From a virus, in the IMG/VR virus record IMGVR_UViG_3300025009_000313, positions 1 to 30,548 of that record: a DNA stretch of 30,548 bases, one strand, 5' to 3'. Below the pieces are notes generated by a model that searched no databases, was not told the origin of the DNA, and worked only from the letters and a program-made list of their open reading frames with translations. The stretch's first letter is position 1; each line of letters starts with the position of its first letter. This document shows positions 3,217-23,749 of this stretch, one piece after another. Both the position numbers and the translations under genes were made by a program.

Positions 3217-3502
3217 AAGACACTCCCTCTCCGCTTACGACAGCGTCAAGGTATAGCACATTAAGGTCAGTAACACGGAGCGTAACCGACTGCCCCGGAA
3301 TAAGAGCGATGCCTCTTCGTGTTCCCGAAGCGGCGACTACCGTGGAAGCGCCGACTACTACCGTGTCGGTGTTTTCAGGTTTGGCGTTGATTATAACCAA
3401 CCGGCACAATGTGCTGGCTGATACCAAAGCAACTGCCGTTCCCGCCGTAGTAACAGCCTTATGGCCGTCCGCTATGTTTGGGTAAGAGTATTCTTGATCC
3501 AT
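3197..3502 (-). CDS. small virion-like protein, paralogue of the protein at 2257-2553
   Basis: 101 residues, predicted beta-rich, no transmembrane segment. It shares with the 98-residue protein the A-x-x-T-A-G-T-A core, N-T-D-T-V-V-V-G-A-S-T-V-V-A-A, T-R-R-G-I, L-I-P-G and V-S-G-E-G-V-S-Y-V-Y. It sits directly after the capsid gene behind a 14-bp hairpin, where decoration or head-stabilising proteins are often encoded. The start context is TTTAAAACAATTTT-ATG with no Shine-Dalgarno sequence, as in most structural genes here. The two copies flank the secreted protein gene, suggesting duplication followed by insertion or divergence. Confidence 0.6.
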   Translation of the reverse strand: MDQEYSYPNIADGHKAVTTAGTAVALVSASTLCRLVIINAKPENTDTVVVGASTVVAASGTRRGIALIPGQSVTLRVTDLNVLYLDAVVSGEGVSYVYFNL

Positions 3503-3534
3503 AAAATTGTTTTAAATTAACCAATAATCTTTCT

Positions 3535-3566
3535 TGCTCCATTCCGCTCAATAGCGGAATGGAGCA
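3535..3566 (-). other. 14-bp perfect hairpin after the capsid gene
   Basis: TGCTCCATTCCGCT pairs perfectly with AGCGGAATGGAGCA across a 4-base loop. It lies between the capsid gene stop (3575) and the next start (3502). No U-tract follows on the minus strand. It probably stabilises the 3' end of the capsid mRNA or partly attenuates read-through. Confidence 0.6.
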
Positions 3567-3574
3567 GTTGTTTT

Positions 3575-4582
3575 CTAGGAAGTAGCCTTGCTGACCAAGA
3601 TTCCTTTTCCGGAAACCGCGCCTATGCCAAAGCATGCGCGAGCCGTGTAGGACAGAATCCATTTGTCTTGATTGACTTCGGCCGGAGCAACCATCGGGGA
3701 CAGCCAGTTCACATAGTAAGCTTGGAATCTTTCTTCCGGCATTCCATTCAAGGAAGCCAAGAACCAGTAATAGGAAAGGGTGGAATCGGTGGCGTTAAGA
3801 GAAGTAGCGTCAAAATCAATGACAAGGTGCTGGTATTTATCTCGGTAGGTATTTTTGACCCCGGCGTTGGCGTTAGCCGTTCCGCCGATAGATTCTGGAG
3901 AAATTGAACCGAAGAGTCTGGCTACCTTGTTCATCACTACCGCTTTTCGGCTGGTGATAAGGGTGTCCGGCTTCATTTCAATTTTTTGGCCGTAATTGTC
4001 ATAGACATTGTAGCCGAAATAATCTTCCGCCGCCTCCAAAGCCACATTGGTCAAAGAGGGAGCGCCCGAAAGGATGTTGGAGTAAGTCGTGGAAGAACCT
4101 TTCAAGGTATGGGCGGTATCAAAGACGGACTTTGCGTCCCCGACAGTGAGGTCAATGCTGAACCCGCCGTTGTCGGTATAAGCGGTCGCTCCGGTGGCAT
4201 AGCCAAGGAAGTTCCTCATATCCAACTCAATCTTATCCACGATGTCTTTGGCGGTTTGAGAAGCGTATTCCGCCAACTTGTGAGCTTCAAGAGCCTTATA
4301 AGCCTCGCCCGACACCAATCTGGTAATTGATATTGTGCTTCGGACAATATCTTTGTAGTAACCTTGCGCGATGCCCCTTTGAGCCGAAGCTTGGCCCTGA
4401 ACCTTTCTTTCAGCGAATCTCTCTCTGTCCAGTTCGTGTATTCTTTTGGTATCAGATTCCCAACCGGCAGTTTCTTTAATGAATATCCTTCGGACATCCC
4501 CGCCCTTTTGGTGGGTTTCCTTGACGAAAGACTTTCTCACTAAATCCTGTATGGCCGGAACTGACATTGTTGAAATCAACAT
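3575..4582 (-). CDS. probable major capsid protein (HK97-fold type)
   Basis: 335 residues, a normal length for this family. It begins with a helical arm rich in charges (VRKSFVKETHQKGG, ESDTKRIHELDRERFAERK). A long alpha segment follows (YKALEAHKLAEYASQTAKDI, DKIELDMRNFLGY). Then come mixed alpha/beta parts including MKPDTLITSRKAVVMNKVARL, a typical capsid element in which an expected value or residue table precedes a helix, and SYYWFLASLNGMPEERFQAY near the C-terminus. It follows the scaffold and decoration-like genes and precedes neck-like genes, the expected place. It starts at 4582; an ATG five codons later is possible. The leader is A/T-rich without Shine-Dalgarno. Fold assignment rests on context and pattern. 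Confidence 0.75.
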   Translation of the reverse strand: MLISTMSVPAIQDLVRKSFVKETHQKGGDVRRIFIKETAGWESDTKRIHELDRERFAERKVQGQASAQRGIAQGYYKDIVRSTISITRLVSGEAYKALEAHKLAEYASQTAKDIVDKIELDMRNFLGYATGATAYTDNGGFSIDLTVGDAKSVFDTAHTLKGSSTTYSNILSGAPSLTNVALEAAEDYFGYNVYDNYGQKIEMKPDTLITSRKAVVMNKVARLFGSISPESIGGTANANAGVKNTYRDKYQHLVIDFDATSLNATDSTLSYYWFLASLNGMPEERFQAYYVNWLSPMVAPAEVNQDKWILSYTARACFGIGAVSGKGILVSKATS

Positions 4583-16251: not shown

Positions 16252-16388
16252 TTTTCCGATTTACGCCTTTCTTCTATCCTTTCCGCCGGACAGTATTTGC
16301 ACCTCCAAAAAATAAAACGCCAATTATATTGAGGAGCGCCCCATTCGTGAAGTCCGAAATAACATAATGTTTTTTGTATGATAGACAT
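16248..16388 (-). CDS. 46-residue Cys-containing small protein
   Basis: The frame runs from the ATG at 16388, which overlaps the previous stop (TAATG), to a TGA overlapping the next ATG (ATGA). It fills the gap exactly, strong evidence for a real gene. The peptide includes LCYFGLHEWGAPQYNWRFIF and WRCKYCPAERIEERRKSEK. A C-x-x-C with the upstream Cys and His (C-Y-F-G-L-H) could bind zinc. Its basic tail suggests nucleic-acid binding. Function unknown. Confidence 0.65.
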   Translation of the reverse strand: MSIIQKTLCYFGLHEWGAPQYNWRFIFWRCKYCPAERIEERRKSEK

Positions 16389-17329
16389 TATTTTTTCTTT
16401 TTGGCTTTAAATGCCAACGACCTTGATATGCTCTTTGGCTCATTCTCCGTTTCAAATTTTGTTTTAGCCGCCTTAACTGCCGTCGCAATGTCTTCTGTGT
16501 CTTCCAGCATAAGACCGTAGTCTAAATAATTTATTTTAAGGGTTTTTGGATAATCGTATGTCTTCCGTTCAGTAAAATAAAAAGTTCCAAATTCCGTTTC
16601 CGCCGTCCTCGCTCCGCCAAAATCCAACTGCCCGGCGATCCGCTCCTTTATTTCGTCCATTTTAATTTCCAGTTCGGCTACTTGCGCATTGAGCCGGGCA
16701 TATTCCGCCGCATCCTCTTGGTTCACAAAATCAGCGCTGGATTCTAGCCATTTCGGGTATTCCTCGTTTACTTCGCCGATTATCGCCAAAATTACCGACG
16801 TAAAGGCCTCCAATTCCTCGCTAGTGTAGGTTATAGAGGCGGCCACGACACTTTCCCCGCCAGTAAGCTCAATCTCCCGCGTAACCTCATTCCAGCGCGT
16901 AGGGATGTATTCTATGTGTCCGACAACCGGAAGCATCCGCCCGTAAAAATTCCATACCAACCACGCCGTTGTTTTCATTTTTAAATCAGAGGCGAGTTTG
17001 TTTGCGTCCCAATTATTCTCTTTTCCGGTTTTATAATCCACAAAAACGGCAGTTTTCCCGTCTTCTTCCGTTGAAAAACTATCGGGGATACCCAAAACTT
17101 TATATTTTTCGGCAAAAAATTCCAAAACCTGTTCGTTGTTTGGGAATTTATGTTTTGCGTCCAATAACCCGCCCTCAATCAGAGCGTGTATTTGCTTGCC
17201 GGTTTTCATTGAGGCGGTTTCCGGTGTTTTTACTCCGGCAAAATAAGAACGAATGAATTGAGAACGGCTATTGACCCAATTATCCAGCGCTGACGGCGAA
17301 ATGTGGGGTTTAATATCGGGATAGAACAT
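16388..17329 (-). CDS. PD-(D/E)XK nuclease, Cas4/RecB-like
   Basis: 313 residues from the ATG at 17329 (MFYPDIKPHISPSALDNW), four bases after the ERF stop; a longer frame to 17392 reads back into ERF. It has the family pattern S-P-S-A-L-D-N-W near the N-terminus, M-K-T-G-K-Q-I-H49, G-I-P-D83, and V-D98-Y-K100-T-G as the metal-binding D-x-K. A coiled coil follows (EYARLNAQVAELEIKMDEIK) and a basic C-terminus. Such enzymes process DNA ends and pair with single-strand annealing proteins in phages; here the partner is the ERF gene immediately before. No four-Cys iron-sulfur cluster typical of true Cas4 is seen. Confidence 0.8.
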   Translation of the reverse strand: MFYPDIKPHISPSALDNWVNSRSQFIRSYFAGVKTPETASMKTGKQIHALIEGGLLDAKHKFPNNEQVLEFFAEKYKVLGIPDSFSTEEDGKTAVFVDYKTGKENNWDANKLASDLKMKTTAWLVWNFYGRMLPVVGHIEYIPTRWNEVTREIELTGGESVVAASITYTSEELEAFTSVILAIIGEVNEEYPKWLESSADFVNQEDAAEYARLNAQVAELEIKMDEIKERIAGQLDFGGARTAETEFGTFYFTERKTYDYPKTLKINYLDYGLMLEDTEDIATAVKAAKTKFETENEPKSISRSLAFKAKKKK

Positions 17330-17333
17330 AGAT

Positions 17334-18092
17334 TTATTTTTCTTCCTTATTATTACCTCCGACCTTTTCCGCAAATTCTTCCCCTTTGGCAATACACATC
17401 TCCATCAATTCATCATATTGCTCTTTGGTAAAACCCAATTTCGGGGCTTTGCCATCCTCAATCAGTTTAAGTTCGGCGCTCATAAATTCGGCTTGCTTGG
17501 CGATTTGTTCTTTCGTTTTCGCTTCTGCGATGTTTTTCTTGGCTTGCTTCAATGCAAATTTTTCAAGGCTTTCTTTTCGTTCCTCTTCCAGTTTTACATC
17601 GTTATCCTCTTCGGTGGCAATTCCCAAAACTAAGGCAAGCGTATATCGGCGAGCGTAGGTTATCTGACCACCAACATCTTTCATGTCGCCCTCTGTTTTG
17701 ATTTTAAGGACACCGGAGCGCAACTCATTCCTTGTCGTAAATTGTGGCTTTTTTTCGTGTTTTCTTTCCCCTGTTGGATTTTCAGTAATAATTTCAAGAA
17801 CACTAAGTTCTTGCAAATATGTTTCGTGCGTCAAAACACACTCCACGCCTTTTTCCGACAGTTCATGTCTTACCGACAACCCGTGCTTGCCAAGCAATGG
17901 GTAAAGATAATCCATAATTTCGTCCAAGGGCGCAAACCAAAAATTAACATCTCTCCCTTCTCTCGTTTTAAATTTGACTTCTTTCGTTCTCTTTACGGAC
18001 TTTAATTCACCTTGCAAAGCCGAGAGCGCCTCAAAAATACTCTCGTAAAAAATACTCTCGTGTTTTATTTTTTCTTCTTTTTTGTCTTCCAT
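17334..18092 (-). CDS. erf: ERF-family single-strand annealing recombinase
   Basis: 252 residues starting at the ATG at 18092 (MEDKKEEK). ERF hallmarks are F-W-F-A-P-L-D-E-I-M-D-Y-L-Y-P-L-L-G-K-H-G-L near residues 50-72 and G-G-Q-I-T-Y-A-R-R-Y-T-L-A-L-V-L-G-I-A-T, with E-E-D-N-D next, near 140-166. The C-terminal third is a charged helical tail. ERF proteins anneal complementary single strands in phage recombination and genome circularisation. The gene begins 17 bases after the tRNA-like RNA at 18110-18239 and has no Shine-Dalgarno sequence; the leader ends ATTATCAATAAAAAT plus an A-run. It is the first protein gene behind the promoter at 18251. Confidence 0.85.
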   Translation of the reverse strand: MEDKKEEKIKHESIFYESIFEALSALQGELKSVKRTKEVKFKTREGRDVNFWFAPLDEIMDYLYPLLGKHGLSVRHELSEKGVECVLTHETYLQELSVLEIITENPTGERKHEKKPQFTTRNELRSGVLKIKTEGDMKDVGGQITYARRYTLALVLGIATEEDNDVKLEEERKESLEKFALKQAKKNIAEAKTKEQIAKQAEFMSAELKLIEDGKAPKLGFTKEQYDELMEMCIAKGEEFAEKVGGNNKEEK

Positions 18093-18098
18093 TTTTTT

Positions 18099-18113
18099 AT
18101 TTTTATTGATAAT
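18099..18113 (-). repeat. 15-base leader element, copy 1
   Basis: ATTATCAATAAAAAT on the minus strand, seven bases before the ERF start codon and overlapping the base of the tRNA-like RNA. An identical copy is at 18884-18898 before the MT-A70 gene. Confidence 0.55.
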
Positions 18114-18239
18114 TATGATATTGGCTAAGGCCGTGGTGTCCATCTTTGCGAATATAAGGTAATTAACCCAGCTAGCTTTTATTCGCAAATGGCGGACTCG
18201 AACCGCCCCCACAGCCTTAACCAACATCCTTGATAATCA
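18110..18239 (-). ncRNA. tRNA-like three-way-junction leader RNA
   Basis: A closing helix pairs 18228-18209 with 18136-18117 (20 bp including three G-U pairs). It is extended by 7 bp (18239-18233 with 18116-18110) across a 4-base bulge. Inside is a perfect T-arm mimic at 18207-18191: 5-bp stem GGCGG/CCGCC with a TTCGAGT loop of 7. It is followed, with one base between, by an acceptor-like 9-bp helix, TTTGCGAAT (18189-18181) with ATTCGCAAA (18153-18145), closed by a 27-base loop. Seven unpaired bases, ATGGACA, take the D-loop position. On the plus strand the three G-U pairs would be A-C mismatches, so selection is on this strand. The predicted +1 (~18244) almost coincides with the helix base. 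Not a canonical tRNA. Confidence 0.7.
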
Positions 18240-18250
18240 CGACCAATTTA

Positions 18251-18305
18251 AGTATATACCAATTAAAAACAATGTCTAGGTTTTTTGTAGTATAACTGTG
18301 GATAA
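18251..18305 (-). promoter_or_regulatory. promoter of the tRNA-like RNA and recombination operon, with DnaA-type box
   Basis: -35 TAGACA at 18278-18273 (5 of 6), 16-bp spacer, -10 TATACT at 18256-18251 (5 of 6). A perfect TTATCCACA box at 18305-18297 lies 18 bp upstream of the -35. Confidence 0.6.
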
Positions 18306-18876
18306 CTTTTTTTGAATATCCATTCCGTCTACTTCGTTTCCCGCGCAATTCCAACCGCGTGTTCTTTGCCGGGCAAAAAGTTCTATACGAGGCAAGTCGC
18401 CCATAAGTTGAACAATTTTATCCCTTATGATTGCCGGTTTTGCCGAATGCCCCCCCCAAATGAGCAATAGTTAAGTTCGCCACGCAACAATTTTCTCTTT
18501 TTGGTTTCCCTTTGGTGGCCAATAGGCATATTTCCGGATTTCCTCTTGTCCAGTATCCAAGTCCGAAGTGAAATCCGTCTGATACTTTATTCTGTTTAAC
18601 CCAAGTAAAAGCAACTGTTTTGTATTGAAAGCCCCATGCTTTTATTGTTTCCAGCGCCTCTTGTAATTTTGGATATGTTGCCCAAAGAAAAAGAACGCAA
18701 TTTTTGTCAGCAATGTCTTTGACCGGTAATTTGTAAATGTCCTCGTTATTCATTACACCATATGGGCTTCTCCCGTTTCTTCTTGCCCATTTTTCTCCAC
18801 GAACTGCCAACTCTTTCATTGACCAGTTTTTAAATCGCCATGGCGGGTCGGCCAAAATAATCTGATATTTTTTCAT
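18276..18876 (-). CDS. MT-A70-type adenine DNA methyltransferase, frameshifted at a G8 tract
   Basis: The first part (18876-18418, 152 residues) starts MKKYQIILADPPWRFKNW with the catalytic D-P-P-W at residues 10-13 and runs to NPEICLLATKGKPKREN, a typical MT-A70 block. The frame then breaks at eight Gs (18457-18450). With seven Gs it would read on through HSAKPAIIRDKIVQLMGDL, PRIELFARQRTRGWNCAGNE and V to the stop at 18276, the usual C-terminal half of the family. As it stands the protein ends early with an unrelated tail. It could be phase variation by G-tract slippage, ribosomal slippage or a sequencing error. The enzyme class methylates N6 of adenine. Its start follows the tRNA-Lys-like gene and the 15-base leader element. 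Confidence 0.8.
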
Positions 18877-18883
18877 TATTTTA

Positions 18884-18898
18884 ATTTTTATTGATAAT
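18884..18898 (-). repeat. 15-base leader element, copy 2
   Basis: ATTATCAATAAAAAT, identical to 18099-18113. It begins one base past the discriminator of the tRNA-Lys-like gene and ends seven bases before the MT-A70 start codon. Confidence 0.55.
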
Positions 18899-18899
18899 A

Positions 18900-18968
18900 T
18901 CGGGGTTCAAGGAATTGCACCTTGCTTGTCTAGTAAAACTAAACCGTGCTACATCCACACCCACCCCG
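18900..18968 (-). tRNA. tRNA-Lys (anticodon TTT), divergent
   Basis: 69 bases with a tRNA cloverleaf. Acceptor CGGGGT/ACCCCG (6 bp plus a G-A mismatch), discriminator A at 18900. Short D-arm GTGT/GCAC with loop GGATGTA. Anticodon arm GTTTA/TAGAC with loop GTTTTAC, giving anticodon TTT with T33 and A37. A 3-base variable region, then T-arm CAAGG/CCTTG with loop TGCAATT, in which T55 is replaced by G. CCA is not encoded. Only one base separates acceptor and D-arm, and the D- and T-loop contacts are atypical, so it may be decayed or specialised. It lies between tiny Cys-rich genes and the MT-A70 gene. Confidence 0.55.
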
Positions 18969-19054
18969 TAAATGAGAGGAATTTGCCGTCCTCTCTTTCG
19001 GCTTTGACCATTTTCTGCGCTAACAGAAAATGCTTTTTAAAGAACAAAGACTTT

Positions 19055-19785: not shown

Positions 19786-19843
19786 ATTTCACCTGCCTTT
19801 CCTAAAAAAGTTTTAAAAAGAGCTACCCATTTAATTTATTATA

Positions 19844-19941
19844 TCATCATCCCCTCAAATTGGCAGGGGTGGAATTATCGGGAGCAAGCCCGCTGGCGGC
19901 CACCCTTGCCTATTAAATCCGCCAGTTTGAAAGGACGATGA
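19844..19941 (-). ncRNA. predicted pseudoknotted RNA
   Basis: On the minus strand an outer 16-bp helix (19941-19926 with 19859-19844; three G-U pairs) encloses a classical pseudoknot. Strand A CTGGCGG (19925-19919) pairs with CCGCCAG (19899-19893), 7 perfect bp. Strand B GGCAAGGGTGG (19910-19900) pairs with CCACCCCTGCC (19872-19862), 10 of 11. A 4-bp hairpin (19892-19879) lies between the two closing strands. The order A, B, A', hairpin, B' with no unpaired base at the A' boundaries suggests a compact folded RNA. It occupies the gap between the 156-residue gene and the small zinc-protein cluster. No known family assigned. Confidence 0.6.
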
Positions 19942-19953
19942 CGGCTAAATTTT

Positions 19954-23618: not shown

Positions 23619-23629
23619 ATATTTTACAA

Positions 23630-23703
23630 ACTCAAAAGGAGTAATGATTGTGCCAGCTTATTACAACTGTTCTCTTGCGAGAAAATCATTACTCCTTTTG
23701 AGT
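23630..23703. repeat. 19-bp perfect inverted repeat upstream of the initiator gene
   Basis: ACTCAAAAGGAGTAATGAT at 23630-23648 is exactly inverted at 23685-23703, with a 36-base loop that itself holds TTCTC/GAGAA. It sits in the 5' leader, 12 bases before the start codon at 23618. Confidence 0.7.
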
Positions 23704-23749
23704 CAATAAAACTATTAAATTTTATGTGTAATAATTCGCACATACAGTC

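What the first reader, a model, noticed from the sequence alone, without database searches (positions are those of the whole stretch)
18110..18244. tRNA-like three-way-junction RNA with permuted tRNA topology in front of the ERF operon
Seen: a 20-bp helix with three G-U pairs (plus 7 bp beyond a bulge) encloses a perfect T-arm (TTCGAGT loop of 7) and a 9-bp acceptor-like helix with a 27-base loop. In linear order the T-arm and 3' acceptor strand come before the 5' acceptor strand, as in circularly permuted tRNA genes. A long helix replaces the anticodon arm and an unpaired heptamer sits where the D-loop would be, which resembles a tmRNA tRNA-like domain. The G-U pairs are wobble only on the minus strand. 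A promoter starts at the helix base and ERF starts 17 bases after it. Inference: a leader riboregulator recognised by tRNA enzymes, or a precursor processed by RNase P into a tRNA mimic. I know of no described class with this layout.
Basis: partly seen in the sequence, partly recalled or inferred. Interest (0 to 1): 0.88.

Follow-up and report, generated by a model that had tools for sequence, protein, structure and literature searches.

The report
tRNA-mimic leader RNA before phage ERF
In front of a phage recombination gene lies a conserved folded RNA leader whose head is laid out like a transfer RNA turned inside out, the same layout as bacterial Y RNAs but without their partner protein gene, so it is probably a new variant of a known kind of tRNA mimic.

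Summary
On the minus strand, 18110-18244 folds into a 20-bp helix enclosing a perfect T-arm and a 10-bp closed acceptor-like hairpin (z about -6; arrangement matched by none of 1000 shuffled windows). A related phage contig carries a diverged copy before the same ERF gene: the outer helix has three double compensatory changes and two broken pairs, while T-arm and acceptor hairpin keep their sequence apart from a one-base bulge. Comparative folding recovers the same three-way junction. G-U wobbles fit only the minus strand, and a promoter lies about 20 nt upstream, so this is very probably a structured RNA leader of the ERF operon.

The claim that no described class has this layout is wrong: YrlA bacterial Y RNAs have exactly this order (outer stem, T-arm, closed acceptor hairpin, D region, outer stem). 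It is not a YrlA member: no Rfam match, no Ro60 gene, no Ro60-stem motif, no D-stem. Other leaders in these phages also carry long helices, and tRNAs or tRNA-like cloverleaves abut several of their genes. tRNA mimicry by the head is likely but unproven: only two distinct copies are known, one favouring another fold by 4.6 kcal/mol.

The parts
18297..18305 (-). DnaA-box-like TTATCCACA upstream of the promoter
   Evidence: identical in L003 and present before ERF in relative G003
18251..18278 (-). sigma70-like promoter TAGACA-16-TATACT
   Evidence: in the L003 alignment the -10 TATACT is kept and the -35 reads TGGACA
18209..18228 (-). outer helix, 5' strand (20 nt)
   Evidence: three double compensatory changes in L003
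18191..18207 (-). T-arm GGCGG-TTCGAGT-CCGCC with tRNA-consensus loop
   Evidence: inside a 28-nt block identical in L003 while the rest differs at 24 of 85 columns
18180..18189 (-). acceptor-like helix, strand that follows the T-arm (one unpaired A at 18190 between)
18155..18179 (-). closing loop of the acceptor-like hairpin, with conserved GCTAGCT
18145..18154 (-). acceptor-like helix, second strand
   Evidence: identical in L003
18137..18144 (-). unpaired D-like segment GATGGACA; the GG is conserved in L003
18117..18136 (-). outer helix, 3' strand (20 nt)
18093..18113 (-). A/T-rich start-codon leader ATTATCAATAAAAATAAAAAA, a similar one stands before the MTase gene
17334..18092 (-). ERF-family ssDNA annealing protein, first gene after the leader
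   Evidence: phrog_2324, E 3e-22
16388..17329 (-). PD-(D/E)XK exonuclease, next gene of the operon

Best explanation
It is a cis-encoded 5' leader RNA of the phage's ERF recombination operon. Transcription starts about 15-20 nt before the element. The RNA folds into a long, sequence-flexible helix that presents a conserved tRNA-like head: T-arm, closed acceptor-like hairpin and a GG-containing D-like strand. The layout is that of YrlA-type bacterial Y RNAs: the tRNA is opened at the anticodon stem and closed at the acceptor end. Most likely the head is bound by a host protein that recognises the tRNA elbow or acceptor (a tRNA-modifying or processing enzyme, or an exonuclease such as PNPase), and this fixes the stability or processing of the ERF mRNA. 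Shown: the predicted structure, its conservation with compensatory changes in the outer helix, the position between promoter and start codon, and the topology. Inferred: RNA rather than ssDNA as the acting form, binding by tRNA enzymes, and the effect on the mRNA.
For: Fold and z-score and shuffles of the arrangement. Diverged copy in contig 3300025015_000126 before a 99-100% identical ERF gene. In the outer helix each strand carries 5 changes, yet 18 of 20 pairs remain and 3 are double changes; random placement gives P 0.006 for the double changes and 0.003 for the pairing. RNAalifold on the two copies finds the three-way junction unaided, with 4 compensatory pairs. A 28-nt block with the T-arm and the start of the acceptor strand is invariant (P about 1e-4 given the divergence around it). 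All wobble pairs in both copies are G-U on the minus strand. Conserved promoter. Same order of elements as Rfam YrlA, whose head is reported to be modified by DusA and TruB and to bind PNPase (PMC8394870).
Against: Only two distinct copies are known, so covariation rests on one comparison; the shuffle control is weak with two sequences (60 of 500 reach it). In L003 the free RNA prefers an alternative head: -52.2 against -47.7 kcal/mol with the T-arm enforced. There is a 1-nt gap between T-arm and acceptor, no D-stem and no encoded CCA. Other leaders of these phages have long helices without any T-arm, so the helix may be a general leader feature. Relatives lack the element. No transcript data.
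Confidence: 0.5

Rival explanations
1. A generic structured phage leader: the long helix right after the promoter stabilises or processes the mRNA (RNase III site, 5' hairpin) or modifies the polymerase (as HK022 put RNA does), and the tRNA-like head is incidental.
For: Long helices lie between promoter and start codon of the DnaD gene in the window (23629-23748, 21 bp with two hairpins) and in relatives G003, L193 and L194, with unrelated sequences. The outer helix of the finding is the part that covaries.
Against: It predicts the head to drift, but the T-arm and acceptor keep their sequence while the helix changes. A T-arm falling by chance inside one such leader has odds near 0.1-0.2% (derived).
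Confidence: 0.3
2. A free trans-acting Y-RNA-like decoy or tether, cut out of the ERF transcript, that acts on host tRNA enzymes, PNPase or a host anticodon nuclease.
For: Topology equals YrlA. Salmonella YrlA lies inside an operon, and a decoy role against an anticodon nuclease has been suggested (PMC7790460).
Against: No terminator or separate 3' end. No Ro60 gene in any related phage record. The Ro60-stem motif is absent.
Confidence: 0.08
3. A circularly permuted tRNA or tmRNA precursor: RNase P and RNase Z remove the 25-nt loop to give a two-piece tRNA-like molecule.
For: Order of T-arm and acceptor strands; genuine tRNAs abut genes in relatives.
Against: No anticodon arm, tag ORF, G3-U70 pair or CCA; ARAGORN and Rfam find nothing; a 1-nt gap breaks the T/acceptor stack; the acceptor helix continues to 10 bp.
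Confidence: 0.04
4. A phage attachment site (attP) carrying the 3' half of a host tRNA gene.
For: T-arm plus acceptor strand is what tRNA-targeting attP cores contain (own knowledge).
Against: No integrase was seen among the window proteins scanned. A scan of 84,980 species genomes for the T-arm followed by ATTTGC found one match, not in a tRNA. The flanking pairing strands are unexplained. The host species may be missing from that collection.
Confidence: 0.02
5. A small insertion element: flanking ATTATCAA copies (18237 and 18113) would be a target duplication and the outer helix its terminal repeats.
For: The relative G003 has the promoter and start leader with nothing between. Direct repeats flank the element.
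Against: ATTATCAAT is a recurrent start-codon leader motif here. Compensatory changes are not expected in unselected terminal repeats. No other copies were found.
Confidence: 0.06

Closest known systems
YrlA bacterial Y RNA (Rfam RF02553; structure 6CU1 as cited in PMC8394870)
   Same: Order of outer stem, T-arm with UUCGANN loop, closed acceptor hairpin, D region with GG, outer stem; no free CCA end; similar length (about 115-135 nt)
   Different: No D-stem, 1-nt gap between T-arm and acceptor, 20-bp outer helix without the Ro60 motif (CGAAUGC / UUGUCG), no Ro60 gene, sits in an mRNA leader
tRNA-like domain of tmRNA, including permuted two-piece tmRNA
   Same: T-arm, acceptor and unpaired D-like loop over a long P2-like helix
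   Different: No tag ORF, G-U acceptor identity, pseudoknots or CCA; Rfam shows only a chance T-arm match at 7.8 bits
HK022 put RNA and RNase III leader sites of phages
   Same: Structured RNA just after an early promoter (from own knowledge)
   Different: No T-arm head; not tested by model here

Membership tests
YrlA bacterial Y RNA | matches the Rfam covariance model RF02553 | tested here: not met
   No match at E up to 10 in the window and two relatives. With a model built from nine YrlA copies the element reaches only 11.8 bits and ranks third in the search, E 0.39
YrlA bacterial Y RNA | order outer stem / T-arm / closed acceptor hairpin / D region / outer stem | tested here: met
   alignments
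YrlA bacterial Y RNA | D-arm with a 4-bp stem | tested here: not met
   8 unpaired nt GATGGACA; GG conserved in L003
YrlA bacterial Y RNA | Ro60-binding basal stem motif | tested here: not met
   CGAAUGC and UUGUCG, shared by the YrlA copies, are absent from the basal helix
YrlA bacterial Y RNA | Ro60 (TROVE, PF05731) gene nearby | tested here: not met
   No match in eight related phage records, which are fragments
YrlA bacterial Y RNA | modified by DusA/TruB, binds PNPase | not testable with these tools
   needs biochemistry; described for YrlA in PMC8394870
tRNA | cloverleaf with anticodon arm and free 3' end | tested here: not met
   ARAGORN and Rfam negative
tmRNA | tag reading frame and alanine identity pair | tested here: not met
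   no Rfam or ARAGORN tmRNA; acceptor lacks G3-U70
attP at a tRNA gene | host tRNA with identical 3' end, integrase nearby | tested here: not met
   no integrase among the window proteins scanned

The most novel reading that the evidence does not exclude
A class of Ro60-free, Y-RNA-like tRNA mimics that serve as 5' leaders of phage mRNAs, part of a wider habit of this phage group to put tRNAs or tRNA-like cloverleaves directly before start codons, so that host tRNA enzymes control phage mRNA ends.
Probability: 0.2. Interest if true: 0.75.

Novelty: new variant of a known kind. Interest (0 to 1): 0.55.

Why it matters
Inside-out tRNA mimics are known as free Y RNAs that tether Ro60 to a nuclease. 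Finding the same layout in an mRNA leader, without Ro60, would mean the tRNA-mimic head has a use of its own. It would also show a way for phages to have host tRNA enzymes act on their transcripts. It is testable with one short RNA in vitro.

Tried and rejected
Rfam at gathering and permissive thresholds: nothing for the element; only chance hits in L003. Pattern scans of viral contigs for T-arm+ATTTGC and for acceptor+GCTAGC found only the two known contigs plus L007, a marine podovirus-like contig with a T-arm between two genes but no permuted structure. Homology scans with ERF, exonuclease, terminase and DnaD found relatives but no third distinct copy. A genome scan with the exonuclease found nothing. 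A Phycisphaerae pattern match is not a tRNA and looks like chance. Rejected: coding function (frame broken in L003), terminator, attP, tmRNA. TROVE-guided search for phage or plasmid YrlA gave nothing useful, so YrlA copies were taken from the phylum of the Phycisphaerae genome.

Full report
WHAT IS THERE. The minus strand of 18110-18244 forms one of the two strongest local RNA folds of that strand. In order it holds: a 20-nt helix strand (18228-18209), a T-arm GGCGG-TTCGAGT-CCGCC (18207-18191), one A, an acceptor-like strand TTTGCGAATA (18189-18180), a 25-nt loop, the second acceptor strand TATTCGCAAA (18154-18145), an unpaired GATGGACA (18144-18137) and the second helix strand (18136-18117). 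Seven more pairs close the base beyond a 4-nt bulge; they are poorly kept in the homologue. A T-arm-like hairpin alone is expected about once in a shuffled window, but the full arrangement was never approached in 1000 shuffled windows (score 30 against a best of 21.5).

SETTING. The window is a linear phage contig of 30.5 kb. The main genes read on the minus strand: ERF annealing protein, PD-(D/E)XK exonuclease, helicase, terminase. The element lies between a sigma70-like promoter (18278-18251) and the ERF start codon at 18092. A DnaA-box-like TTATCCACA stands upstream of the promoter. An ORF in frame with ERF crosses the element in the window but not in the relative, so the element is probably noncoding.

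CONSERVATION. Contig 3300025030_001557 has the identical element. Contig 3300025015_000126 (L003, L006) has a diverged copy in front of an ERF gene that is almost identical. Its upstream gene differs, so a recombination boundary lies near the leader. In the outer helix each strand changed at 5 of 20 sites, yet 18 pairs remain: three changed on both sides, one on one side, two broken. Random placement of as many changes reaches this with P 0.006 (double changes) and 0.003 (pairing). RNAalifold on the two copies, with no structure supplied, returns the same three-way junction with four double changes, one of them in an inner extension of the acceptor hairpin. A 28-nt block that holds the T-arm and the start of the acceptor strand has no change, while the other 85 columns have 24 (P about 1e-4). 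The GG of the D-like segment is also kept. All wobble pairs in both copies are G-U on the minus strand. Structure and strand are therefore well supported. The picture is a flexible helix carrying a head that is held constant.

LIMITS. Only two distinct sequences exist in the collections searched. The column-shuffle control has little power with two rows (60 of 500 shuffles reach the observed values); sliding the partners destroys the signal. The diverged copy, folded alone, prefers another head by 4.6 kcal/mol, although its first 60-66 nt fold the T-arm, as they would during transcription. Folding energies ignore modification, tertiary contacts and proteins, so this is a caution rather than a refutation.

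RELATIVES WITHOUT IT. In phage contig 3300014208_000010 (terminase 70%, ERF 53% identical) the same DnaA-box, a promoter and an A/T-rich start leader stand before ERF with nothing between. L085 (ERF about 42%) also lacks the element. A covariance model of the two copies finds no further example in 28 phage records. The element is thus an optional part of the leader. ATTATCAA flanks it on both sides, which could mark an insertion, but that motif recurs before start codons in this phage.

WHAT IT IS LIKE. There is one. YrlA bacterial Y RNAs, read off the Rfam alignments, run: basal stem, T-arm with UUCGANN loop, acceptor hairpin closed by a loop, D-arm, basal stem. A review describes their head as similar to the D, T and acceptor arms of tRNA, modified by DusA and TruB and binding PNPase, with the basal stem holding the Ro60-like protein Rsr (PMC8394870). 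The element shares the order and the T-arm but fails membership. There is no Rfam match. A model made from nine YrlA copies gives 11.8 bits and only third rank. There is no D-stem, no Ro60-stem motif and no TROVE gene in eight related phage records, most of them fragments. It works like the head of a Y RNA at most; it is not filed as one.

CONTEXT THAT CUTS BOTH WAYS. Long helices also lie in the leader of the DnaD gene, here (23629-23748) and in three relatives with unrelated sequences. That favours a general role of leader helices and is the main rival. On the other hand tRNA structures before start codons recur in this phage group. Two real tRNAs abut genes in G003, a tRNA with an 8-nt anticodon loop precedes a gene in G400, and cloverleaf-like folds precede the MTase gene in the window, a gene in G401 and the terminase gene in L173. 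That favours a real use of tRNA likeness in leaders.

VERDICT. Structured leader RNA: about 0.85 likely. tRNA-mimic head recognised by host tRNA-handling proteins: about 0.5. The mechanism after recognition is inference. Novelty: new variant of a known kind.

Noticed in passing
18898-18969 (- strand); L202 2499-2576 (-); L204 about 3465-3580; L173 8737-8818: tRNA-like cloverleaves sit directly before start codons. In the window, G400 and G401 they occupy the same place after a conserved 54-aa gene, with odd T-loops (TGCAATT, TCCGATT, TGCAAAT) and in G400 an 8-nt anticodon loop. The window and G401 copies give no Rfam match.
   Followed up: partly
23629-23748 (- strand): Strongest fold of the minus strand: a 21-bp helix with two hairpins in the leader of the DnaD gene. 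Three relatives have leader helices there with unrelated sequences; some look like attenuators.
   Followed up: partly
18297-18305, 23794, 13931, 5762 (- strand); L172 5186, 7984, 11648, 16979; L178 2952, 4895: A DnaA-box-like TTATCCACA(G) stands just upstream of promoter-like sites again and again in this phage group.
   Followed up: partly
L172 7757-7838 and 11796-11869: tRNA-Tyr and tRNA-Met genes end 1 and about 10 nt before phage start codons, as if the tRNA were the leader of the mRNA.
   Followed up: no
L003 1-490 against window 18418-18876: The MTase gene of the window is replaced in L003 by two small ORFs between two conserved leaders, a cassette exchange with a boundary in the leader.
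   Followed up: no
L007 584-606: A perfect T-arm followed by ATTTGC lies between two ORFs (the second resembling a capsid gene) of a marine podovirus-like contig; no permuted structure there.
   Followed up: partly
19829-19948 (- strand): Another long imperfect helix (about 17 bp with branches) in an intergenic stretch.
   Followed up: no
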